Both the position numbers and the translations under genes were made by a program. From contig JAWXAT010000050.1 of the NCBI GenBank assembly GCA_034439615.1, forward strand, positions 1 to 64,000: a stretch of 64,000 nucleotides of DNA, written 5' to 3'. The DNA comes from Oligoflexia bacterium. Lineage in GTDB: Bacteria; Bdellovibrionota; Bdellovibrionia; JABDDW01. Positions within the stretch are counted from its first letter, which is position 1; each line of letters begins with the position of its first letter. The notes below the pieces were generated by a model. It made no database searches and had not been told where the DNA came from. It saw only the letters and a program-made list of their open reading frames with translations. This document shows positions 38,660 to 51,875 of the stretch, one piece after another.

Positions 38660-40483
38660 ATGTTGACAAAAATGAAAAAAATTCTAGCAACGCAACTGAG
38701 TTCTGAGCTCAATCAATCAGAACAAGAGATTGTCACGCTGCTCGAAACCCCCAAAGATGCATCTCACGGAGATTTGGCGTTTCCATGTTTTGCGCAGTCA
38801 AAGTTATTGCGCAAGTCGCCTATGATTATTGCTCAAGAATATGCATTTAAATTTGAAAAAAACTTACCCCATGGTTTTAAAAAAGCTCAGAACATCGGAG
38901 GATACATAAATTTTTTCTATGATGAAAAATTCTGGATTAAAACTGTTTTTGATGAAATCCAAATCAAAAAATTAAAGTTAGGGGACAATCTTAATATTGG
39001 TGCTGGTAAAACCGCTGTGTTTGACTACTCATCACCAAACGTTGCAAAGCCTATGAGTATTGGCCATTTACGTTCTACTGTTATTGGGCAAGCGTTGGTG
39101 AACATTCATAAAGCCATGGGTTATAAAACAATCGGCATTAATTATTTGGGTGATTGGGGAGTGCAATTTGGCAAATTAGCTTGGGCTCATCTCAATAAGA
39201 CCCAGCTTCTCAAAATGGCCATGACAAATTCAGCTCAAATCATTGGAAATGGTTTTAAAGACGATCTTTGGGCTAAACTTATTAGCGATATCGAAACAAA
39301 AACTGATACTTCATTTGATTATCTCTATGCCCTCTATGTTGTTTTTCATGCCCTTGCGGAATTTGAACCTGTTTTAGAAGATTATGGACGTGATTATTTT
39401 TTGCGACTTGAGAACAGACAAAGTTCAGAGTCAAAAAAAGATCCTCTTAACACACGCATAGAAGAGACATGGAAGAAATTCGTCGATATCTCACTTATTG
39501 AATACAATAGAGTCTATGAACTTTTGGGCATTCAACATGATCTCATTCGTGGTGAATCATTTCATGAGCCAGAACTACCTGGAGTTGTAGCATCGCTGAG
39601 TCAAAATGGCTTACTTAAGATGAGTGAAGGTGCGCAAATCGTTGACCTTGACGCTTACAATATGCCTCCTTGTTTAATTCAAAAATCTGATGGTGCAACT
39701 CTTTATGCGACTCGCGACATTGCCGCTGCAAGCTATCGGCATGATATTCTTAAAGCGCAAAAACTTATTTATGTCGTAGGTGCAGAACAGGGTCTGCATT
39801 TTAAGCAGCTCTTTAAGGTTTTAGAGCTCATGGGGCATGATTGGGCAAAAGATTGTGTGCATGTCCCATTTGGACTTTATCGATTTAAAGATGGAAAAAT
39901 GTCAACCAGACGCGGCAATGTTGTTTTTTTAGAAGATGTTCTTGATCGTGCTGTTGAACTCGTTAGGCAGATCATTAAAGAAAAAAATCCAGATCTTAAA
40001 GACCCCGAATCAGTGGCTAGGGCTGTTGGAACGGGGGCCGTAGTGTTTAATGATTTGATGAATGATCGGGTTAAAAATATAGATTTTGATTGGACCAGGC
40101 TTTTAGATTTTAACGGCGACACGGGGCCCTATGTTCAATACACACACGTGAGGTGTTGTAGTGTTATTAGTAAATGGAACAAAGAACTTCCCAAAATCGA
40201 TGAAGCTTTAGAATTAACTGAGAAGCTTGAATTGGAAGTAATTCGAACTTTAGGAAGATTCAATGACATTGTAAGGCTCTCTTATGAACAACTTAAACCA
40301 AACTGGATTGCGCAATACCTCCTAGACTTAAGTAAAGCGTTTAACGCTTTTTATTATGAGCATCGTATTCTTGAAGGTGACTTGAAAGTTCAAAATTCTC
40401 GCATATTGCTTGTTGATTCCACTCGCCTTGCACTTCGTCGAGGTCTAGAGCTCTTAGGAGTTCAAACACCAGAAGCAATGTAA
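38660..40483 (+). CDS. argS: Arginyl-tRNA synthetase
   Basis: Class I synthetase that charges tRNA-Arg. The order is: N-terminal tRNA-D-loop-binding domain (1 to ~110), then the HIGH motif in FDYSSPNVAKPMSIGHLRST (about residues 118-137). A KMSKS-like motif follows, MSTRRG, near 413-418, and the C-terminal DALR helical domain (PYVQYTHVR onward). At 607 residues it is slightly long. There is no ribosome site before the ATG and a TACAAT box lies only 9 bases ahead, so a leaderless mRNA is possible; an ATG at 38672 is the alternative. Confidence 0.96.
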   Translation: MLTKMKKILATQLSSELNQSEQEIVTLLETPKDASHGDLAFPCFAQSKLLRKSPMIIAQEYAFKFEKNLPHGFKKAQNIGGYINFFYDEKFWIKTVFDEIQIKKLKLGDNLNIGAGKTAVFDYSSPNVAKPMSIGHLRSTVIGQALVNIHKAMGYKTIGINYLGDWGVQFGKLAWAHLNKTQLLKMAMTNSAQIIGNGFKDDLWAKLISDIETKTDTSFDYLYALYVVFHALAEFEPVLEDYGRDYFLRLENRQSSESKKDPLNTRIEETWKKFVDISLIEYNRVYELLGIQHDLIRGESFHEPELPGVVASLSQNGLLKMSEGAQIVDLDAYNMPPCLIQKSDGATLYATRDIAAASYRHDILKAQKLIYVVGAEQGLHFKQLFKVLELMGHDWAKDCVHVPFGLYRFKDGKMSTRRGNVVFLEDVLDRAVELVRQIIKEKNPDLKDPESVARAVGTGAVVFNDLMNDRVKNIDFDWTRLLDFNGDTGPYVQYTHVRCCSVISKWNKELPKIDEALELTEKLELEVIRTLGRFNDIVRLSYEQLKPNWIAQYLLDLSKAFNAFYYEHRILEGDLKVQNSRILLVDSTRLALRRGLELLGVQTPEAM

Positions 40484-40579: not shown

Positions 40580-41260
40580 ATGGCCACCAGGGTCATGGTT
40601 ATTTGGGTTTTATCTCTGCTGGTGATGTGGGCCGGAGTGTATGGCTATTTCTCAACGTATTATAATGGCGTTGAGTTTGAAAAACATCGCGTTGCAAGTT
40701 TAGAAAAACGTCTCAATCGTAGTTACCGTCATTTTGCAAAACTTCAAATGAGCTTTAGTGAATATAAAGATGCCATGGTCGTTGCGGGTTTGAAAATCAA
40801 CAACCATACCAAGTGGACAGATGTCACACGTTCAATTGCAAGTGTTGTTTCGGATCCCCAATATAAAAAAATTCCTCTACCACAACCCGGAACACCCTTA
40901 TTTCTAAAAGCTAGAAAGATATTTAGCGCAGGGGATTTTTTAAGAGCGTCAGAAATATTAGATGATTTTATTTCAAAGTATTCAGATCATCCAGCTTTGC
41001 CTGAGGCAGGTCATCTTCTAGCGGAAAGTTACTTCTATCTTGATCAACAAGAAAACGCTGTGAAGATGATCGACTATGTATTAACGCATTTTCCTGAGAC
41101 TGAATTTGCGGGCTATGGACTTTTGCGATTAGGTAAAATATTTGAAAAACAAGAGCGACTTGAAGAAGCAGTTGAGATGTATCAAGTTGTAATTGATAAT
41201 TATGATAAATCAAATTCAGCAAATCTTGCTCGCAAATATATCAAGGAACTTAATTTATGA
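40580..41260 (+). CDS. Membrane-anchored TPR protein
   Basis: One N-terminal membrane helix (about residues 3-23), a coiled-coil segment (~35-65), then from ~105 tetratricopeptide-like repeats: SAGDFLRASEILDDFISKYS, AGHLLAESYFYLDQQENAVK, LLRLGKIFEKQERLEEAVEM. This resembles YbgF/CpoB and BamD-type periplasmic scaffolds, but the specific family is not clear. AAGGAG precedes the ATG by nine bases. It is first of a probable five-gene envelope operon; its stop overlaps the next start by 4 bases. Confidence 0.75.
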   Translation: MATRVMVIWVLSLLVMWAGVYGYFSTYYNGVEFEKHRVASLEKRLNRSYRHFAKLQMSFSEYKDAMVVAGLKINNHTKWTDVTRSIASVVSDPQYKKIPLPQPGTPLFLKARKIFSAGDFLRASEILDDFISKYSDHPALPEAGHLLAESYFYLDQQENAVKMIDYVLTHFPETEFAGYGLLRLGKIFEKQERLEEAVEMYQVVIDNYDKSNSANLARKYIKELNL

Positions 41261-42090
41261 ACTCAGTGAGAAAACATATGGTTGTGTTTTTTCGTGTGTT
41301 TATTGTGATGATATCATTTGTTGTTGATATTAAAGTTCGTGCTGACGTTTCTGTGCGAATTATTACGGGTGCCGTGGATATAGAAAAAAATGGTCAGCTT
41401 CAGGTTGTTCAAACTTTGCCAGCTAAGTTTATTGAACCATTAGATATACAAACATTCACAAAAGGTCATGTAAAGCTCATGGCAAATTCAGTGAGTATAG
41501 GCCTTGCTGAAAAGTCATTTGTATCATTGGCAAGTGAACCGGCTTTTGAATTTTTTCAAGGGATTGGCTATTTCAAAACACCTCATTTTCTTACACTTAA
41601 AACTCCCCATGGTGAAATTGAAACAGATGGCGGAGAGTTTTTACTTTCTACAAATCGCTCTAAAACCACGATTTGGGTTGTGGCTGGTTCTTTAATTGTA
41701 AAAGATCGATCTTCTACATGGCAGCAAAAAATTCGTTCAGGTTATACTTCTTGGATTGGTGGGTTATTATCTGTTGGTAGACGTGCCCATGGTGAACTTC
41801 AAGCATCTGAATTTGAAACGGTCATGAATTTAGTCAAACATTTAAGCCACTATACTTCAGATGAATTGCAATTTAAATACGATAATTATCGAATTGTTTG
41901 GAAAGACGCAGTAGAAACCATTGCTCTTGAAACGCAAGATAAAGTGCTTGATGATTTAAAGACATATGCTGAAATTCAAAAAATTGAAACTAAACGCCAA
42001 ATTGCTAGTGAACAAGACAATGCTCGTTTAAGGCGTTATTACAGAGCAAAAACAATTGGCTTACCTGACCAAAATGAAGAAGTTCCTTAA
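41257..42090 (+). CDS. Exported FecR-domain protein
   Basis: A signal peptide or anchor (to about residue 30, ending VRA) is followed by a FecR-like beta-helical region (VRIITGAVDIEKNGQ, FTKGHVKLMANSVSIGLAEK, LKTPHGEIETDGGEFLLSTN, TIWVVAGSLIVKD). Then comes a charged helical tail (~190-277). FecR domains sense or bind in the periplasm; without a sigma factor neighbour this one looks structural rather than regulatory. Translation is coupled to the TPR gene through ATGA. Confidence 0.68.
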   Translation: MNSVRKHMVVFFRVFIVMISFVVDIKVRADVSVRIITGAVDIEKNGQLQVVQTLPAKFIEPLDIQTFTKGHVKLMANSVSIGLAEKSFVSLASEPAFEFFQGIGYFKTPHFLTLKTPHGEIETDGGEFLLSTNRSKTTIWVVAGSLIVKDRSSTWQQKIRSGYTSWIGGLLSVGRRAHGELQASEFETVMNLVKHLSHYTSDELQFKYDNYRIVWKDAVETIALETQDKVLDDLKTYAEIQKIETKRQIASEQDNARLRRYYRAKTIGLPDQNEEVP

Positions 42091-42160
42091 GAATTTGTGG
42101 CATGCAACTTGAAATTAAAATCATAGAAGACATTGGTATTCATTTTGGAGTATTTGACAC

Positions 42161-43003
42161 GTGTTTAGTGTTCATAAAGTGTTCATTCGATTAACTTTTT
42201 TTGTCACACTTGCGTTTGTAAGCTATTCGTTTACACAAGCAAAAGGTGCAACCTGTGTACAAATTCTTGCGGCACAAAAAGAGGTGATTTCACAAAAATT
42301 AACTGAATTGCCTGAATTACGCGAAATGGTTTTGAGAATGATTGACGATCCGTTAATTCCAATGAACATTAAGCGCATATTAGAAGTAGCACTCATTCGC
42401 AAAAATACTCAGGTAAGACAACTCACTGCTGAACTTCGAAAAGAATTAAAAATTCCAGAAGAATTAGATATTGATGGAGCTTATACAACTACAAATTTAG
42501 CTTTTAGAAGAATGAATGTGGGCAATACTTTAAATCAAAAATTTACAGAACAGGCTGACTTTTCAAGCGTACAGCCTGGATACTCGGTTTTTGTTCAAAA
42601 CCGAGTGATTACGAGTGAAAATAATGATTTTAGCACTCTGGTTCACGAACTTTCACATGTGCGTTTTAATTATTCGTTAGAGCGGCAGTTAACGGTGTTA
42701 TTAAAAAAACTCCCTCCAGATTTAATTCGTAAAGCAAGTGATGGAGTAGTTGAAATTAGTGGAGAATTGTTTGATTTTCTAACTGAAAGATATGCTTTTC
42801 AAACAGAGTTTGAATTATTAGAGGCAACACAAGCGCGATATTATAAAGCTCGCTATTCAAAGTTTCCTCCCCAAGTAACTCGTGAAAACTACAAGTCCCT
42901 CATTGCAGCTCATATTATAAGTGTTTACAATATTACAGACCCACGAGTTGTAAGATTAAAGGACTTTTCGATTTCTGATATTCTCCTGGGCAAACCCTTT
43001 TAA
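42161..43003 (+). CDS. Exported protein with HExxH metalloprotease motif
   Basis: Signal peptide (about 1-26, ending TQAKG) followed by a helical N-terminal part. A putative zinc site follows, H162-E163-L-S-H166 in FSTLVHELSHVRFNY, and Glu residues ~50-60 residues on (ELFDFLTERYAFQTEFELLEA) could give the third ligand. This is a gluzincin-like pattern but no family is recognised, and catalysis is not shown. GTG start with GGAG 11 bases upstream is weak. It follows the FecR gene by 70 bases. Confidence 0.6.
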   Translation: MFSVHKVFIRLTFFVTLAFVSYSFTQAKGATCVQILAAQKEVISQKLTELPELREMVLRMIDDPLIPMNIKRILEVALIRKNTQVRQLTAELRKELKIPEELDIDGAYTTTNLAFRRMNVGNTLNQKFTEQADFSSVQPGYSVFVQNRVITSENNDFSTLVHELSHVRFNYSLERQLTVLLKKLPPDLIRKASDGVVEISGELFDFLTERYAFQTEFELLEATQARYYKARYSKFPPQVTRENYKSLIAAHIISVYNITDPRVVRLKDFSISDILLGKPF

Positions 43004-43209
43004 TGAAAAAATAACAGATCCTGATTGAAATAATTCCTAATGCTCTCTTGTGCCCCCATCAATTTGAGTCCAAAGTATGAGGAATTATATAATAATATCG
43101 AATAATTAAGGCTTTGTGCTTAAACACGTATAGGGCCCATTTTCTGAGCTCCAAATCAAATATAGGCACTGCTCGTTGGCATGCGCTGTGCTCTTTTTTC
43201 CCTCGAATT

Positions 43210-44448
43210 ATGGGTATCAGAAAAATAATTTTCGTAATCATTTTAAGCCTTTGGAGTCAGTCGGTAGGGGCTGATTTAGAAAGCACAAACTTACTCCCAA
43301 AAAATGTGTGGAGTCCTAAATTTATTTATGGAAGTTATTCTGGCCTAAGTGATCGTTATAATTCATCAGGACTTCTTGAGGGTGTCAGTGCCCGTTATCA
43401 CATTGATCTTACAAGTCAGCGTTTAGCGCGCATGAATGATGAAGTGCAAATACTTATAAACGCCTTGAATTCTTTTTCTCATGATTTAGGGAATAAAGTT
43501 TATTTTGGTACTCTTGATTTTAAATCAAACCCAGTAATTGATTATTTTACGCCCATGTTGACCTATGGTTTATCAAAAAATGTTTCAGTAGGGGTGGGTA
43601 TTCCTATTGTGCATTATCAAAATACTGTTCAGGTAGTTATGAGTGGTAAAAGTAATATCCAAGATATTATTGATCACACCGGTGATCTCAACGAAGATTT
43701 AAAGAATGGTTTATTAAAAGCAAAAAACAGTGTGGCAGAAATTCCAACACTCTTTCAAGCCACACTTATTAAAAAAGGCTACAAATCTGTTCGAAACGTC
43801 AATTACACAGCCATCGGTGATGTTCAAGCTTCTGCTAATTATTTATATTATAAGAAAAAAAATCTTCGCCTATCTGTAAGGCCCTACGTGCAAGTTCCTA
43901 CAGGTCAAAAAGATGACCCAGATGATTTGGTTGACTTAGCAACTGGCGGACAACCAGCCGTGGGTGCGTATTCGATTCATGAGTTTAAAATATTACCAAG
44001 GCTAACTTTGGCATCTTCGGTTGGGTATCATGCTAACATTGAAGACCGTGTTAATTTGAGAGTACCTGCCAGTACTGATGATTTACTCCCGGGGCCTGAA
44101 CGAAAAGAGAATGTAAAAAGAAAGACGGGGAATTCGATTTTTCTTGAAGGGGGAACTCGTTATACGATTTCTCCTCAATTCGAAGTTGGTGCTTATTACG
44201 ATTATACACAAAAAGATCCTGACTGGTATGCTGGCGAAAATGGCTGGAACTATGGAGCCCTGAGCGATGACAGCACAGCCCAAACTCATCAGCTCAAAGG
44301 TGTAGTAGAGTTTAATACAGTAAATTGGTATCAACAAAAAGCGTATGATGTTCCATTTATATTGGGTTATGTCTATGGGAATACTTTTTATGCGATAAAC
44401 TATCCTTCACAAATAACTAATCAACTTTATTTAAGGATGTTTTTTTGA
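43210..44448 (+). CDS. Outer-membrane beta-barrel protein
   Basis: The frame is open from 43114, but the ATG at 43210 puts a clean signal peptide first (MGIRKIIFVIILSLWSQSVG, cut before ADLEST). The rest alternates polar and hydrophobic residues in many short strands (NYLYYKKKNLRLSVRPYVQV, IFLEGGTRYTISPQFEVGAY) and ends in Phe, the usual barrel C-terminus. About 412 residues, so a barrel of perhaps 12-16 strands. No channel family is recognised; it resembles the uncharacterised transporter-like porin families of Proteobacteria. Confidence 0.72.
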   Translation: MGIRKIIFVIILSLWSQSVGADLESTNLLPKNVWSPKFIYGSYSGLSDRYNSSGLLEGVSARYHIDLTSQRLARMNDEVQILINALNSFSHDLGNKVYFGTLDFKSNPVIDYFTPMLTYGLSKNVSVGVGIPIVHYQNTVQVVMSGKSNIQDIIDHTGDLNEDLKNGLLKAKNSVAEIPTLFQATLIKKGYKSVRNVNYTAIGDVQASANYLYYKKKNLRLSVRPYVQVPTGQKDDPDDLVDLATGGQPAVGAYSIHEFKILPRLTLASSVGYHANIEDRVNLRVPASTDDLLPGPERKENVKRKTGNSIFLEGGTRYTISPQFEVGAYYDYTQKDPDWYAGENGWNYGALSDDSTAQTHQLKGVVEFNTVNWYQQKAYDVPFILGYVYGNTFYAINYPSQITNQLYLRMFF

Positions 44449-47400
44449 TGAAACAGGTGGGGTTTGTTTTATTTTTAATCCTTGCTTCGTTGAGTTGTTC
44501 AAAACGCTCAGAGCCGCCAACGCGTCCTCAAGTAGAGCGAGTGTTCGGCTCTAGACTTTCAGATACACCAGTTAAATTTTTGGAAAGTTATCGTCCATTA
44601 CGACAAGAAAAAATCACTTCAGAAATATATCTTCCAAGTAGTCAATGGTTAGGACTTTCCAAGCAATTACTAGAGACGGGTCATTTAATTGAAAATGAAC
44701 GACTATTGGCAATGGGGAGTCGTATTTTTAATTCTTTTTATTCATGGAATGGTTCAACAACAAAAATGTCTGCAAGTACGAATCCGCCAGGAAATCCCTA
44801 TGTAGAGCTTGCATACCCCTATGCACAAAAAGCCTTAGATGATTATAAAGTTGCTGTGATTAAAGTAAAAGAAGTTGCGATTAATGCAGCCGAAAAAACG
44901 CAGGTCAATCAGGCAGGGTTAACTGCTCAATCATCACCTGCGCTAATTGTTACTTCTATAATCAACGGAATTGATGATTTTCTTAAACATCTTGAAATAC
45001 AAAAAACTTCACAAACTGAATTTGGAATAAATAAAATTACAAAACTAGTGCGGGAACTTCCAGATATGAAGGGCTTGTTGTACCTAAGAGATAATTCCGT
45101 ATATGACAAGGATAAAGACAAAAACGATCTTCAGAAGAATTACTATCCTGTTAAAGAATTTATGCGCGGATTACTTACTAATTTAGAATTACTGCAATCA
45201 TTAGATGCTGAGATGAAAAATGCATTGCTGTTAGATCTTAGTTTTGGAATTGATTTAGCTGAAAAAACAGAAAGTATTCAAAATGAGAATGATGCTCTCA
45301 TTGTGGTTGTTGATCTGTGGCAGAATAAATATAGACGTCTACGATTCACGCAACAACTAAAGAATTTATTTGAATCGTATAATGACTCTGAACTCCTTGC
45401 GCTCATCACTAATAATCAATTAATGTCAAATTCAGAATATAATATTTTGACAAGGAGAGATGACTATAAATTCATGACACCAATTCAACAAGCGACATTG
45501 ATGCTTGAAAATAAACAGGGTGTGGATAAAGAGCGCTGGGAAGATCTAGAGCAAATCAAAACTCAATGGCTTATTAAATTAATAACTCAATCACATATTA
45601 AAACTTTTGCACGTCGTTTTAATTCAGAACTCAAAGTTGACAGCGCCCCAGAAGTAGAACTTAATGCGTTAATCGCGAGTTGGATGGGTCTTGAAATGAG
45701 ACTTTTGTATCCATATGCAATTAGAAAAAGCCTCACTGACCAATCACCTGAAGATCTTGAATTAGTTAAAAATCCAAAACTTAGTAAGTTTTGGCATCCA
45801 TTTGTCTATGAGAGTCGACAAAATGCATTAAATGAAATTAAATTATTTGTCGCTGGTGCTGTTGAGCCTGATCCCGCATTAGGAATCTCACGTCTTAAGG
45901 CTTACTTTGGAGAAAGCTTAGTTAAAACCGCTCAACTTAGAGTCGTCAACGCGCTATTGCCTGTTGGTCGAGAGCTCAAGTTACATCTTCGAAAGAAAAT
46001 CGTAGATATGGTAAAGCCAGATAGCCGTACGGCTGAGCAGATTTACTTAGAACAAGTTAATAAAAATGCCCCATTGTGGTTTTTTAAAGATGGCAAGGAC
46101 TTACCTTTACTTGAAAAAAGCGGATTACAATTTTCTTATAAATCTGGAAAATTTGAATATCTGCGAAGTACTTCTCAAAGTGGCGCAAAAGTACTAGGCG
46201 TATCATTGGCTGCTACGACTTTGGAGCTAGATAGCTTACAAGAAAAAGACAATGCATTGCCAATTGCTTTTCAAATGATTTGTAAGCTTGCTTCATTGAT
46301 GGGCTATAAACATTTAAACGGTGAAAAAGCACCAGCGCTTACGATACTTTTTTCAAACCAATATTCGACAAATGGTTTTGATATCAGTTCATACAATCCG
46401 CAAGATGGAGTATTTGCGACTCCAGAATTTTTTTCTATAAATGAACGAAGTGAATTGATCAAAGATATAAACACGAATTCCTACGCTAGTGTTGGCAGTC
46501 AAATGGAGTTGCTTAGCGGATACAATCATGTTTTGAAGTATTTAAAACCATGGGAAAAAACTACTTTTGATAAACAATTGGGGAAACTAAAACTTCGTGA
46601 TGAATCGGGTGAAGAGTTAGCATTTGATGTCTTTGATAAAGATAGCCTTTTTGCAATGACCATTGGTTTGTCGAATGTCATTTTGCAAAACATTAAGCAT
46701 CAAATGGCAAGAATCTTAACGTCTGATGATAAATTATTAAGTGTTGCTGAATTAAATCGATTAACCGCGAATAATATTCAGTCAAATGAAATAGCAGCTG
46801 TTCTTGTGGATTTAGATAATACAAAAAAAATTACGCTTGTGAAAACCTCTGCAATTGCTCAATCACTCATTGCCTTGGCAGAATTTTATCAGGTCACTTC
46901 TGATTCTGAAAAATCTCAAAATAAAGAATTTCGCACTAAGATTTTACCTCATTTAGTCGCTGCAAGATCTGATATTAAACGCCTTATTACAGGTCTAACT
47001 GCCTTTTCGCTTTCAAAATTGATGATGCAAGACGGAGGGTTTTCTCAAGGTTATAATTTTCAAAAAAACACATCAATTGTAGGAGTCCGAAATCTTGATG
47101 ATCAACTTCTCATGGAAGAAGCGCTGTTAAGCGTTGGTCAACTTTTTAACTCAGATTTGATTCGTTTTAGGGCTGTAGATAATCTATTTTTCATTAACAA
47201 AACATTTTGGAACAGCGAACTTGGTTTTTACAATATGACTGAAGATATAAAACAATCACCTGTAGTAAAATTGGCTTCGGTAAGTAAAGCACTCAAAAAT
47301 GCTCATGAATTTAACATACTGTTTAGTAAATTTATGACTCATAGTTCCAATGCTCGTGCTGCGCGAACTCAACTTGAAAAGATGGAAAGACTTTGGCTTG

Positions 47401-47468
47401 ATCGTTTCTTTGATCGAAGGATTCAAGAGCTGCCTGCAATCTCACAAGTTTTCGAGTTTTCACTTTGA
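44445..47468 (+). CDS. Giant helical lipoprotein, unknown
   Basis: Unrecognised 1007-residue lipoprotein. The signal ends in a lipobox with the lipidated Cys18 in LILASLSCSK; Ser at +2 predicts sorting to the outer membrane. The mature part is long and mostly helical with no clear repeats, Cys pairs or catalytic motifs. It overlaps the barrel gene by 4 bases (ATGA) and the two are probably partners at the cell surface. Base use is like its neighbours, with no sign of recent transfer. Confidence 0.75.
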   Translation: MMKQVGFVLFLILASLSCSKRSEPPTRPQVERVFGSRLSDTPVKFLESYRPLRQEKITSEIYLPSSQWLGLSKQLLETGHLIENERLLAMGSRIFNSFYSWNGSTTKMSASTNPPGNPYVELAYPYAQKALDDYKVAVIKVKEVAINAAEKTQVNQAGLTAQSSPALIVTSIINGIDDFLKHLEIQKTSQTEFGINKITKLVRELPDMKGLLYLRDNSVYDKDKDKNDLQKNYYPVKEFMRGLLTNLELLQSLDAEMKNALLLDLSFGIDLAEKTESIQNENDALIVVVDLWQNKYRRLRFTQQLKNLFESYNDSELLALITNNQLMSNSEYNILTRRDDYKFMTPIQQATLMLENKQGVDKERWEDLEQIKTQWLIKLITQSHIKTFARRFNSELKVDSAPEVELNALIASWMGLEMRLLYPYAIRKSLTDQSPEDLELVKNPKLSKFWHPFVYESRQNALNEIKLFVAGAVEPDPALGISRLKAYFGESLVKTAQLRVVNALLPVGRELKLHLRKKIVDMVKPDSRTAEQIYLEQVNKNAPLWFFKDGKDLPLLEKSGLQFSYKSGKFEYLRSTSQSGAKVLGVSLAATTLELDSLQEKDNALPIAFQMICKLASLMGYKHLNGEKAPALTILFSNQYSTNGFDISSYNPQDGVFATPEFFSINERSELIKDINTNSYASVGSQMELLSGYNHVLKYLKPWEKTTFDKQLGKLKLRDESGEELAFDVFDKDSLFAMTIGLSNVILQNIKHQMARILTSDDKLLSVAELNRLTANNIQSNEIAAVLVDLDNTKKITLVKTSAIAQSLIALAEFYQVTSDSEKSQNKEFRTKILPHLVAARSDIKRLITGLTAFSLSKLMMQDGGFSQGYNFQKNTSIVGVRNLDDQLLMEEALLSVGQLFNSDLIRFRAVDNLFFINKTFWNSELGFYNMTEDIKQSPVVKLASVSKALKNAHEFNILFSKFMTHSSNARAARTQLEKMERLWLDRFFDRRIQELPAISQVFEFSL

Positions 47469-47531: not shown

Positions 47532-48548
47532 GTGAAATTCGGAATCATCAGCCTCATTGTATTATCTTTTGCATTCACTGGCTGTGTGAAAAAATCAAGC
47601 GGAGGCAATGACGAAGAAAATGTCGTTTTTGCTACCGTTAATGGAAAAGAAATAAAGGGGAAGGATATCCTCGGAAAAGTTAAGAATGATCTAGCCGAAC
47701 TTAAGCGTAATGAGTACGAAATAAAGCGTCGTGCAACAGAAGAGGTCATACAACAGACAATTCTTGAGGAAGAAGCAAAAAAACAAGGCACATCAGTTGA
47801 TAAATTATTTTCTCAATTTGATAGTCTTCGAGATAAAGAAGTTGGAAAAGACGATATTCAACAGTTTTTAAAGCAAAGAAATATTGAAGAAAAAAGACTT
47901 TCCAAACAAGAAAAAGAATCCATTCCGCAAATCATTAAAATGCAACGTGTGTATGAAGCTCGACAAAAATATGCTGGTGAATTGCGCGTGAAATCAAACG
48001 TTCAATTCAAGATTCCTAAGCCCATTGAAAAAGTTGATATCAGTACTGGCAATGGAACACCACTTGGTGGAGCAAATGCAAAAGTCACAATCGTTGAATT
48101 TAGTGATTTTCAATGTCCATTTTGTTCGCGAGGGCGACAACGCGTAGATGAAATTAAACAAAAATATGGTGATAAAGTTCGTGTTTTTTTCAGACATTTC
48201 CCGCTGGAAAGTATTCATCCATTGGCCATGAAAGCGTCTGAAGCTTCTTTGTGTGCTCAAGATCAAGGTAAATTCTGGGAATATCACGATTTACTTTTTG
48301 ATAACCAAAGTAAACTTGATGATAAAAGTCTAAAAGAATATGCGACACAACTTAAGTTTGATCAAAAAGTTTTTGAAGAATGTCTTTCATCAGGCAAGAA
48401 GGTCGCTGAGGTTCGTAAAGATATGGAAGACGGAACAAAAGTGGGAGTGAATAGCACACCTACTTTTTTCGTCAACGGGTATCCTGTTAGGGGTGCGGTG
48501 CCCCTTGAAGCTTTCTCAGAAGAGATCGACGAACAGCTAGGCAAATAA
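47532..48548 (+). CDS. DsbA-like lipoprotein with SurA-N-type segment
   Basis: A lipobox (FAFTGC, Cys18) leads into a Gly/Ser/Asn linker, then a SurA-N-like helical stretch (FATVNGKEIKGKDILGKV, ATEEVIQQTILEEEAKKQG). From ~170 comes a DsbA-type thioredoxin domain with Cys195-Pro-Phe-Cys198 (FSDFQCPFC), SLCAQDQGKFWEYHDLLF, and the cis-Pro loop GVNSTPTFFVNGYPVRG. The active site Cys pair is intact. Known family role: disulfide formation or isomerisation in the periplasm. GTG start with AGGAGG. A strong terminator follows. Confidence 0.88.
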   Translation: MKFGIISLIVLSFAFTGCVKKSSGGNDEENVVFATVNGKEIKGKDILGKVKNDLAELKRNEYEIKRRATEEVIQQTILEEEAKKQGTSVDKLFSQFDSLRDKEVGKDDIQQFLKQRNIEEKRLSKQEKESIPQIIKMQRVYEARQKYAGELRVKSNVQFKIPKPIEKVDISTGNGTPLGGANAKVTIVEFSDFQCPFCSRGRQRVDEIKQKYGDKVRVFFRHFPLESIHPLAMKASEASLCAQDQGKFWEYHDLLFDNQSKLDDKSLKEYATQLKFDQKVFEECLSSGKKVAEVRKDMEDGTKVGVNSTPTFFVNGYPVRGAVPLEAFSEEIDEQLGK

Positions 48549-48570
48549 TTAATTAAAAATAGTATAAGCA

Positions 48571-48608
48571 AAACGGGTTAGACTTTCGTCTAACCCGTTT
48601 TTATTTTT
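48571..48608 (+). terminator. Rho-independent terminator after the DsbA lipoprotein
   Basis: AAACGGGTTAGAC (48571-48583) and GTCTAACCCGTTT (48588-48600) form a perfect 13-bp stem with a TTTC loop, followed by TTATTTTT. It ends the envelope cluster. Confidence 0.92.
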
Positions 48609-48707: not shown

Positions 48708-50348
48708 ATGGCAGTAGATACTGTAAATCAAAGAAATGAGCATATTCGAGAAGCCAAAGAAGACAAGGAGCAATCTCTTGTCGCAAAGCATAGGCGCGAA
48801 ATTGCTGAACTTCAAAGAAAACATGTTGAGACAATTCAAGGTTTAAAAGAGGGCTTTGACGAACAACTCACAGAACTCCGCAAGGACTCACGTGAAGCAC
48901 TGACCTCAAAAGAACAAAATCATCTAAAAGAAATTCAAGAAGTTCAAGAAGTCAATCGTAAAAGACTTATGAAAACAAAGGCAGATGACGAAGAACAACT
49001 TCGCACAACAAAGTCGACCCTTTTAGGTGAGTTAGAGCGTTCTAAAGGGAAGAATGAATCTGATAACACTCGACTTACAAAGCTTATGGAATCTGAACTT
49101 TCTAAAAAAGATTCTGCTACACGTGATATGGAGTTGAAATCTCGAGAAGGTTCTCAAGAAGCTATAAAAAATCAAGCAAATCGCTATCAAGATAAATTTG
49201 AAGAGGAAAGAAATTTTTATCGTTCGGTGATCGGTGAAAATATTAAAGAAAAAGAAAGAGAATTTGGAGATCTTAGGCGCTCAAAAGAAGTTAATGAGAA
49301 AAATCTTAAAGGTCGATTGGAATCTCAAAAGCAGCGAGCTGATGAGAGGTTTAAGGACACTGTTCTTGGCGATAGAGCCCGTTATCAGGCAAGTCTTGAT
49401 CAGATGTCTGAGGGGTATCAACAACAACGTGGTATCGATCATGAAAAATTAGACAAGCAATCAACCAAGCTTAATACGACATACGTTGATAATTTAGATA
49501 ATCTTCGTGAAACCGTAGACAGTAGAATTGAAAAAGAAGTTAGAAGTGTTCGACGTGAAAACCATGATTTAAAAAATGCTCTGACGACTGATAAAGTTGA
49601 AATGAATCGCAAAAAAGAAACAGAAAAAAAGAATCTTACTAATGAATTTCAAAAAAGTATTGTAGAGCTAGAAAAGCGACGGGGAGAAGCTACTACACAG
49701 GCCCATGAAGGTTATGCAAAAAAGATTGATGAAGTTCAAGGCCGAAATGACAAATTCATCGAATCTATAAATACGTCATATGGTCGAAAACTTGAAGAAC
49801 AAAAAATTAATCACCAAAAACATTTCGACGAAGAAATTGGGTATGTAACTCGTGATCGAGATGTAAATAAAATGCAGACTGACAAACAAAAGAAAAAATT
49901 AGTAGATATTTATGCTGATAAGACAGTTATGCAGACTGATTTTTACGAAGATCAAATAGATTTGAAAAAGAAAGATGCAGAGCAAGCTTTAGTTAATCAA
50001 AGAAATAACATGCAAAAACAACACCTCAATGATGTCGGCACACTTCGTAATCAATTGGTAAAAGAGAGTGTCGATCATCAAGAAAAATTAATTGATACAA
50101 CCAGTAAGTATGAAAAACAACTTAATACAATGCGCAATGAATTTGAGAAGAAATTCAGACAGCAAAATGAACTTTTTCGTGAACAAACCAATTCACAAGT
50201 TAAAAATCAACAAATGGAACGCGAATCATTTGAAGCTAAGATGAAGCAGCGTATCAATCAAGTCAAAGAAGTCTATGAGCGTGAAATTGAACAGCTCAGA
50301 AAAAGACAGGCCGTAGAGCGACAAGATCTTGCCACTAAGAAAACATAA
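48708..50348 (+). CDS. Long, highly charged coiled-coil protein, unknown
   Basis: Unrecognised 546-residue protein with almost no large hydrophobic clusters. It is dominated by Lys, Glu, Asp, Arg and Gln, with heptad-compatible segments from end to end (for example EIAELQRKHVETIQGLKEGF and QNNMQKQHLNDVGTLRNQLV-like stretches). It predicts one extended rod, perhaps 70-80 nm if continuous. No signal peptide, Cys or globular domain. GGAGGAGAAAGC precedes the ATG. It is a single gene between strong regulatory sequences and pyk. Candidates are a filament or cytoskeletal spacer protein; this is inference. Confidence 0.8.
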   Translation: MAVDTVNQRNEHIREAKEDKEQSLVAKHRREIAELQRKHVETIQGLKEGFDEQLTELRKDSREALTSKEQNHLKEIQEVQEVNRKRLMKTKADDEEQLRTTKSTLLGELERSKGKNESDNTRLTKLMESELSKKDSATRDMELKSREGSQEAIKNQANRYQDKFEEERNFYRSVIGENIKEKEREFGDLRRSKEVNEKNLKGRLESQKQRADERFKDTVLGDRARYQASLDQMSEGYQQQRGIDHEKLDKQSTKLNTTYVDNLDNLRETVDSRIEKEVRSVRRENHDLKNALTTDKVEMNRKKETEKKNLTNEFQKSIVELEKRRGEATTQAHEGYAKKIDEVQGRNDKFIESINTSYGRKLEEQKINHQKHFDEEIGYVTRDRDVNKMQTDKQKKKLVDIYADKTVMQTDFYEDQIDLKKKDAEQALVNQRNNMQKQHLNDVGTLRNQLVKESVDHQEKLIDTTSKYEKQLNTMRNEFEKKFRQQNELFREQTNSQVKNQQMERESFEAKMKQRINQVKEVYEREIEQLRKRQAVERQDLATKKT

Positions 50349-50399: not shown

Positions 50400-51875
50400 T
50401 TGATTGCTGATCGACGAACTAAAATAGTAGGAACCATAGGGCCCGCATCTCAATCTCCTGAGATGCTTATGAAACTAGTTGAAGCAGGGCTTAACGTCGC
50501 TCGGCTTAATTTTAGTCATGGTATTCACGCTGATCATCAAAACGTTATTAAAACTCTGCGTAGCATTTCTCAAAGCGAAAATGCTCCCATCGCTTTGCTG
50601 CAAGATCTTCAAGGTCCTAAAATTAGAATTGGTAAAGTTAAAAACGGAAGCATCCAACTTGCTGACGGCCAAAAAATTATAATTAAAGTTGGAAATCATA
50701 TTGGTGATGAAAAAGTTTTAGCCACAGATTTTCATACACTTCCTAAAGATGTTAAACCTCATACACACATTTTACTTGATGATGGAAATCTAGAATTTGT
50801 AGTTGAAAAAATATCAGGCGATGAAGTTCATTGTCAGGTTATTTATGGTGGGGAATTAAAAAACAATAAAGGTATGAACTTACCAGGTGCGCGCCTCAGT
50901 GTTGAGGCGATGACCGAGAAAGATTATGCAGATCTTGATTTTGGATTATCGCAAGGTGTGGACTATGTAGCTTTGAGTTTTGTTCGCCAAGGCAAAGATA
51001 TTAGACAGCTTAGAGAGATCATTGAAAGAAAAGCCAAGGGAACAAAAATTATAGCTAAAATTGAAAAAGTTGAAGCCCTTGATAATCTTGAAGATATCGT
51101 AGCTCTTTCAGATGGAGTTATGGTGGCCAGAGGTGATTTAGCTGTTGAGGTAGGGCAAAGTCTATTGCCGGGAAAGCAAAAAAAAATAATCAAACTTTGT
51201 AATGCTCTTGGTAAACCTGTTATTACAGCTACGCAAATGCTTGATTCTATGATTGAGAATCCAAGACCTACTCGAGCCGAAGTTACTGATATTGCCAATG
51301 CAGTTTTAGATGGAACAGATGCCGTGATGCTTTCAGCTGAAACAGCGAGTGGGAAGTATCCAGTAAAGTGTGTTCAAACCATGGATGAAATCATTCGAGA
51401 AGTAGAAAGAACTGACGTTCATTACTATCAAATGAATTTACGCGATGAATTTTTAACCGTAGCTGAGGCAATAGCTGAGAGTGCTTGTCTTTCTGCTATG
51501 AAGTTAAATGCTGCTGTTATTGTTTGTCTTACGACCTCAGGAAAAACCGCCACATTAATTTCTCGTTTTAGACCTAAAGCAAAAATTATCGCTGTGACAC
51601 ATATTATGGAAACTCTCAATAGACTTGAATTAGTATGGGGCATTGAGGGTATTCCAATCACGCCCTATAGTGATACTGATCTTGTGATGAAAACTTTAGA
51701 GAAAACACTTGTGGATTATGGTGTTTGTAAACAGGGTGATAAAATCATTTTTACGATGGGTTTACCGGTCTTGGAACGTGGCACTACAAACAGTGTTCGT
51801 GTCTATACTATTAAAGATCTTTCACCCACTGAATTAAATCCAAAAGAAATGCCTCTACGCTGTCGCCCAAAATAA
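50400..51875 (+). CDS. pyk: Pyruvate kinase
   Basis: Last step of glycolysis, converting phosphoenolpyruvate and ADP to pyruvate and ATP. Motifs: RTKIVGTIGPASQSPEML, RLNFSHG, GVMVARGDLAVEVG, and the K/Mg site ITATQMLDSMIENPRPTRAE with NAVLDGTDAVMLSAETASGK. The C-terminal allosteric domain begins near 350. A TTG start lies 8 bases behind GGGG. Length 491 is typical. Confidence 0.96.
   Translation: MIADRRTKIVGTIGPASQSPEMLMKLVEAGLNVARLNFSHGIHADHQNVIKTLRSISQSENAPIALLQDLQGPKIRIGKVKNGSIQLADGQKIIIKVGNHIGDEKVLATDFHTLPKDVKPHTHILLDDGNLEFVVEKISGDEVHCQVIYGGELKNNKGMNLPGARLSVEAMTEKDYADLDFGLSQGVDYVALSFVRQGKDIRQLREIIERKAKGTKIIAKIEKVEALDNLEDIVALSDGVMVARGDLAVEVGQSLLPGKQKKIIKLCNALGKPVITATQMLDSMIENPRPTRAEVTDIANAVLDGTDAVMLSAETASGKYPVKCVQTMDEIIREVERTDVHYYQMNLRDEFLTVAEAIAESACLSAMKLNAAVIVCLTTSGKTATLISRFRPKAKIIAVTHIMETLNRLELVWGIEGIPITPYSDTDLVMKTLEKTLVDYGVCKQGDKIIFTMGLPVLERGTTNSVRVYTIKDLSPTELNPKEMPLRCRPK

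What the first reader, a model, noticed from the sequence alone, without database searches (positions are those of the whole stretch)
40580..47468. Five-gene envelope operon of unknown purpose
A membrane TPR protein, a FecR-domain protein, an exported HExxH protein, a beta-barrel and a 1007-residue lipoprotein lie in one direction. Two of the four junctions are ATGA overlaps. None belongs to a recognised pathway, but the set has what a surface or secretion device would need: scaffold, sensor or solenoid, protease, pore and large lipoprotein.
Basis: inference. Interest (0 to 1): 0.6.

Follow-up and report, generated by a model that had tools for sequence, protein, structure and literature searches.

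The report
Two gene pairs, not five-gene device
The five neighbouring envelope genes are not one conserved machine: they are two separate, anciently conserved gene pairs plus one stray gene, and one of the pairs joins a known kind of outer-membrane channel to a large, undescribed lipoprotein that has stayed beside it throughout a group of predatory bacteria and their relatives.

Summary
All five ORFs are real. (1) TPR–FecR is a translationally coupled pair inside an old argS–TPR–FecR–coiled-coil–pyk neighbourhood, and it persists in Bdellovibrionia that lack the rest. (2) Barrel–lipoprotein is an autonomous pair: adjacent in 38 of 38 distinct loci (one has a gene between), with gaps of −4 to +112 nt in 29 of 30 genomes, in unrelated contexts, and with mirrored trees. 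(3) The HExxH gene is a private insertion: absent from both sister genomes and found in 4 of 144 class genomes. The barrel is a 12-stranded COG4313 channel: two sister orthologues pass the PF13557 cut-off, the PTG motif is invariant, and the top structure matches are FapF and Pput2725. The lipoprotein has no Pfam family; its C-terminal half is predicted as an (alpha/alpha)6-like toroid without a conserved histidine. Best reading: an outer-membrane conduit for hydrophobic or amphipathic cargo with a dedicated lipoprotein partner. The two-gene unit is well supported; cargo, direction and physical contact are inferred. It is a new variant of a known channel kind, not a five-gene secretion device.

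The parts
40580..41260 (+). Membrane-anchored TPR protein, 226 aa, CpoB/YbgF-like C-terminal TPR; first gene of the coupled TPR-FecR pair
   Evidence: TIGR02795 69 bits, below its 90 cut-off; CpoB 6g5s E 7.6e-15
41257..42090 (+). Exported FecR-like protein, 277 aa, beta domain plus C-terminal charged helix; ATGA-coupled to the TPR gene
   Evidence: (FecR 15.7 bits, below cut-off)
42161..43003 (+). Exported HELSH-motif protein, 280 aa, GTG start; lineage-private gene, not part of either conserved pair
   Evidence: no family; 4 of 144 class genomes
43210..44448 (+). 12-stranded COG4313 (Phenol_MetA_deg)-type outer-membrane barrel, 412 aa from ATG 43210 (ORF open from TTG 43114)
   Evidence: (pLDDT 86.8)
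43897..43905 (+). Barrel residues P230-T231-G232: the invariant PTG motif at the beta5-beta6 loop
   Evidence: sequence; motif described for FapF in PMC5557850
44448..47468 (+). Large outer-membrane lipoprotein, 1006 aa, Cys17; C-terminal half predicted as (alpha/alpha)6-like toroid; constant neighbour of the barrel
47532..48548 (+). SurA_N + DsbA/thioredoxin_4 lipoprotein-like gene, probably the last gene of the transcription unit
48570..48601 (+). Terminator-like stem-loop (14 pairs) with T tail after the DsbA-like gene
48708..50348 (+). 546-aa coiled-coil protein, conserved next to pyk; part of the TPR-FecR-coil-pyk neighbourhood
50400..51875 (+). Pyruvate kinase, conserved anchor gene of the neighbourhood

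Best explanation
The interval holds two independent gene pairs and a stray gene. The interesting pair is barrel + lipoprotein. The barrel is a 12-stranded COG4313-type outer-membrane channel. The lipoprotein is its dedicated partner, anchored in the outer membrane, with a helical N-terminal half and a C-terminal (alpha/alpha)6-like toroid. Most likely mechanism: the barrel passes a hydrophobic or amphipathic molecule across or into the outer membrane (COG4313 lateral/lumen route), and the toroid lipoprotein, tethered beside it, binds, accepts or processes that molecule. SHOWN: the two-gene unit, its conservation, the barrel family. PREDICTED: the folds. INFERRED: physical contact, cargo class, uptake direction. 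TPR-FecR is a separate coupled pair of unassigned envelope role (a CpoB-like TPR with an exported FecR-like partner), associated with coiled-coil + pyk rather than with the barrel.
For: Pair adjacent in 38/38 distinct loci (one with an intervening gene), while flanks range over argS/pyk, mlaEFD/trypsin, MFS, lipoate ligase, DbpA helicase, ABC NMT1 and others; gap -4 to +112 nt in 29/30 genomes. Barrel and lipoprotein distances correlate, r=0.89 against null maximum 0.47. Barrel family: orthologues in both sister genomes pass the PF13557 cut-off (35.2 and 22.2 bits against 22) and four members of A6 hit it; Foldseek top hits are FapF (2.5e-13) and COG4313 Pput2725 (3.1e-12, TMt 0.78); PTG is 100% invariant at the beta5-6 loop, as described in PMC5557850 and PMC4493636. 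Hydrophobic cargo: COG4313 literature (PMC4493636); paralogous barrels elsewhere in the phylum lie beside TatT/BstC-family proteins (profile hits 8g52 2.7e-12, BstC 1.4e-7), and BstC binds sterols (PMC10942540); in several Bdellovibrio the pair follows mlaE-mlaF-mlaD closely. Lipoprotein toroid: model pLDDT 76.9, hits to the AGE/cellobiose-epimerase fold at E 4e-4.
Against: FapF, the best structural match, exports polypeptide, so the same fold does not fix cargo or direction. The mla adjacency is confined to one genus and probably one or few events. The lipoprotein of this pair is not homologous to the lipoproteins beside the TatT-linked barrels. Tree congruence is expected of any two vertically inherited neighbours. 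The window barrel itself is not reported by PF13557. No complex was modelled.
Confidence: 0.5

Rival explanations
1. The pair is a polypeptide-secretion channel of FapF type: the barrel exports a protein and the lipoprotein is its periplasmic or surface escort.
For: The best structural hits are FapF chains; the PTG motif is shared. Prey-invading relatives export many proteins (general knowledge).
Against: No N-terminal coiled coil or 13-residue plug helix before strand 1 (the mature N-terminus has about 11 residues). No amyloid subunit and no cysteine protease recognised beside the loci examined. COG4313 uptake channels match nearly as well.
Confidence: 0.15
2. The toroid lipoprotein is an enzyme (carbohydrate-active (alpha/alpha)6 fold) that trims or isomerises a glycan moving through the barrel, as AlgL/BcsZ do in polysaccharide export.
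For: Foldseek matches to 2-epimerases, GH76, GH48, GH88 and GH8; conserved polar residues lie near helix starts (K731, Q886, D708) or in the preceding strand (E556).
Against: No conserved histidine, which the epimerases need (general knowledge). No polysaccharide synthase or export genes recognised at the loci examined. TM-scores normalised by the whole query are low (about 0.2).
Confidence: 0.15
3. One reading: all five genes form one surface or secretion device.
For: Co-directional, short spacings; a four-gene TPR-FecR-barrel-lipoprotein order recurs in several families.
Against: HExxH absent in sisters. FecR in 105/144 class genomes but lipoprotein in 53/144, with about 60 genomes having FecR alone. 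In the genome taken to be HD100 the two pairs lie about 1.3 Mb apart.
Confidence: 0.08
4. The conserved adjacency is only slow gene-order decay after vertical inheritance, with no functional link.
For: Trees mirror each other as vertical inheritance predicts.
Against: The pair has been relocated to several unrelated contexts without being split, and the spacing stays near zero.
Confidence: 0.07

Closest known systems
COG4313 / PF13557 channels (Pput2725, SphA)
   Same: 12-stranded barrel, invariant PTG at the beta5-6 loop, short N-terminal segment before strand 1, PF13557 hit in sister orthologues
   Different: Two long helical loop insertions (residues 45-97 and 146-196), a conserved DDPDD/RVPxxEDDxLPD/DxYxG loop set, and a dedicated large lipoprotein partner; the passages read describe no such partner
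FapF amyloid transporter
   Same: Best fold match; PTG motif; 12 strands
   Different: No coiled-coil or helical plug N-terminus, no fap operon genes
TatT/BstC T-component proteins with lower-scoring barrels in Bdellovibrionota
   Same: Helical periplasmic partner encoded beside a COG4313-like barrel; a lipoprotein gene follows
   Different: The 300-440 aa lipoproteins there are not homologous to this 850-1100 aa lipoprotein, and the TatT-like protein is not related to the window's TPR protein
AGE/cellobiose 2-epimerase (alpha/alpha)6 superfamily
   Same: Predicted toroid of paired helices in the C-terminal half
   Different: 8-11% identity, no conserved histidine, large extra helical N-terminal half, lipid anchor
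CpoB/YbgF
   Same: C-terminal TPR of the 40580 gene
   Different: N-terminal transmembrane anchor; no tol-pal genes; sits with FecR-like, coiled-coil and pyk genes

Membership tests
COG4313 / PF13557 (barrel) | 12-stranded beta-barrel | tested here: met
   model, 12 strands, pLDDT 86.8; one search matches 4rl8
COG4313 / PF13557 (barrel) | Pfam PF13557 score above the gathering cut-off | tested here: inconclusive
   Met by the orthologues in G002 (35.2) and G001 (22.2 against 22); window copy itself not reported
COG4313 / PF13557 (barrel) | PTG motif at the beta5-beta6 loop | tested here: met
   P230 T231 G232 invariant in 36 rows
COG4313 / PF13557 (barrel) | N-terminal segment occluding the lumen | not testable with these tools
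FapF | Periplasmic coiled coil plus helical plug before strand 1 | tested here: not met
   strand 1 starts at residue 34, directly after the signal peptide region
FapF | fap operon context | tested here: not met
AGE 2-epimerases (lipoprotein toroid) | (alpha/alpha)6 fold | tested here: inconclusive
   E 4e-4, TMt 0.44-0.52, model of moderate confidence
AGE 2-epimerases (lipoprotein toroid) | Conserved catalytic histidines | tested here: not met
   no conserved His among columns at 75% or more
Outer-membrane lipoprotein | Lipobox cysteine without Asp at +2 | tested here: met
   Cys17 100%; +2 mostly A or S, Asp seen in none of the listed rows
CpoB (TPR protein) | Score above the CpoB/YbgF equivalog cut-off and tol-pal context | tested here: not met
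   69 bits, below 90.1; conserved neighbours are argS, FecR, coiled-coil, pyk
FecR | PF04773 above cut-off | tested here: not met
   15.7 bits, cut-off 24

The most novel reading that the evidence does not exclude
A Bdellovibrionota-specific two-component outer-membrane transporter in which a COG4313 channel works only with a lipid-anchored (alpha/alpha)6 toroid protein, possibly to take up or remodel lipids or other amphipathic molecules. This would be a channel-plus-toroid architecture not described in the papers read.
Probability: 0.35. Interest if true: 0.65.

Novelty: new variant of a known kind. Interest (0 to 1): 0.48.

Why it matters
COG4313 channels were described as stand-alone barrels in the structural work read here. 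A lipoprotein that never leaves the barrel across many families suggests such channels can be two-component machines, and gives an experimentally accessible handle in Bdellovibrio bacteriovorus. It also shows that an apparently coherent envelope operon can be a union of two independently conserved pairs, which matters for reading function from gene order.

Tried and rejected
(1) Five genes as one device: rejected by synteny. (2) Mla/MCE membership: mlaEFD lies just upstream of the pair in HD100-like genomes, but other lineages, including other Bdellovibrio, have different neighbours, so it is kept only as weak support. (3) An ABC NMT1/THI5 transporter beside L043: a different context, no general link. 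(4) Lipoprotein homology to the lipoproteins downstream of the lower-scoring barrels: none. (5) Kinship of the TPR protein to TatT: none. (6) PDB sequence profiles for lipoprotein and barrel: only chance hits. (7) Published work on the HD100 copies: locus tags were only estimated by interpolation (about Bd3416/3417) and those searches returned nothing relevant; supplements could not be read. (8) Rfam: no RNA family in the window. (9) Sigma-70 and terminator scans are at chance level overall.

Full report
What is there. Five co-directional ORFs lie at 40580-47468. TPR/FecR overlap by ATGA and barrel/lipoprotein by TGATG. The HExxH gene is separated from FecR by 70 nt and from the likely barrel ATG (43210) by 206 nt. 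Upstream is argS (38660-40483). Downstream are a SurA_N/DsbA-like gene (47532-48548), a strong stem plus T-run (48570-48601), a coiled-coil gene and pyk. The genome is an unnamed Bdellovibrionota assembly; its nearest named relatives are records titled 'Oligoflexia bacterium'.

Neighbourhood test. Searches of relatives and stretches around the hits were annotated with profiles of each protein. Result one: the high-scoring barrels are followed by the lipoprotein in all 38 distinct loci. Two loci are not simple: L039 has one gene between the two, and in L037 the lipoprotein is split into two ORFs. The gap was -4 to +112 nt in 29 of 30 genomes where both were located. Flanking genes differ widely: argS/TPR/FecR and coil/pyk in eight database loci plus the window; mlaE-mlaF-mlaD, often with a trypsin-like gene, in six Bdellovibrio loci; an A_deaminase-like gene and an MFS gene, lipoate ligase, DbpA helicase or an NMT1 ABC transporter in others. 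The pair is therefore an autonomous unit. Barrel and lipoprotein trees correlate (r 0.89, null maximum 0.47), and the pyk-locus location needs only two changes on the tree; the root, and so gain versus loss, is not resolved.

Result two: TPR-FecR is a separate pair. It is overlapping in all 17 loci measured, mostly by 4 or 1 nt. It sits before coil and pyk also in Bdellovibrionia genomes whose barrel-lipoprotein pair is elsewhere (for example G015, taken to be HD100 from its length of 3,782,950 bp, recalled from memory, and from three DacB-like genes) or not detected (G018, G024). FecR is found in 105 of 144 class genomes, the lipoprotein in 53, and about 60 genomes have FecR without the lipoprotein. 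There is a mild positive association (Fisher p 0.02), not corrected for kinship; the overlap counts were tallied by hand from the two tables.

Result three: the HExxH gene is private. It is absent from both same-family genomes and present in 4 of 144 class genomes, three of these only as distant matches elsewhere.

What the barrel is. AlphaFold gives 12 strands at pLDDT 86.8. Foldseek ranks FapF and the COG4313 channel Pput2725 first. Orthologues in the two sister genomes pass the PF13557 cut-off, and four rows of A6 hit PF13557. The PTG motif at the beta5-6 loop, a described feature of FapF and one of the conserved COG4313 patches (PMC5557850, PMC4493636), is invariant in 36 rows. The window copy itself is not reported by PF13557, so membership rests on orthologues of 45-47% identity plus fold and motif. 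The longer loops that are best conserved are L3 (PTGxxDDPDDL), L4 (RVPxxEDDxLP) and L5, as expected if the COG4313 loop cluster is functional.

What the lipoprotein is. It has no Pfam or NCBIfam family. Cys17 is invariant and no listed homologue has Asp at +2, which argues for outer-membrane sorting. The model (pLDDT 76.9, pTM 0.67) is helical, with paired long helices in the C-terminal half. Foldseek matches (alpha/alpha)6 2-epimerases at E about 4e-4 with TMt about 0.5. No histidine is conserved, so it is not an epimerase of that kind on present evidence.

Function. The cargo argument has three weak legs: the COG4313 literature points to hydrophobic molecules; paralogous barrels across the phylum are preceded by TatT/BstC-family proteins (profile match to 8g52 at 2.7e-12 and BstC at 1.4e-7), a family with a sterol-binding member (PMC10942540); and the pair abuts mlaEFD in part of Bdellovibrio. 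Against this, FapF shows the fold can export polypeptide. I therefore give the two-gene unit about 0.9, COG4313 identity about 0.85, and hydrophobic-cargo uptake about 0.4; the combined statement gets 0.5.

Verdict. The five-gene interpretation is not supported as a unit, but within it lies a well-conserved, apparently undescribed channel-lipoprotein pair worth an experiment.

Noticed in passing
window 47532-48548 and 48570-48601: A SurA_N plus DsbA-fold gene follows the lipoprotein in the window and both sister genomes and is closed in the window by a long terminator-like stem; it may be the sixth gene of the transcription unit.
   Followed up: partly
L075-L088, L065, L070: Lower-scoring COG4313-like barrels across Bdellovibrionota are commonly preceded by a TatT/BstC-family helical protein and followed by an unrelated lipoprotein, mostly of 300-440 aa: a second, parallel barrel cassette.
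   Followed up: partly
L052 (CALQIT020000004.1): A record titled Streptomyces griseus encodes the barrel-lipoprotein pair and groups with Bdellovibrionota; probably a mislabelled or contaminated bin.
   Followed up: no
L074:4457-8651: In the genome taken to be B. bacteriovorus HD100, mlaE, mlaF, mlaD, a 119-aa ORF and a trypsin-like gene run directly into the barrel-lipoprotein pair.
   Followed up: partly
L037:7592-10668: The lipoprotein of G016 is split into two ORFs (253 and 781 aa); either a frameshift or a true split.
   Followed up: no
window 48708-50348: A 546-aa coiled-coil protein without a known family is conserved next to pyk in many Bdellovibrionia genomes.
   Followed up: no
G003: The genome whose length fits B. 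exovorus JSS (from memory), an external predator, shows neither barrel nor lipoprotein match; presence is patchy also among close Bdellovibrio.
   Followed up: no
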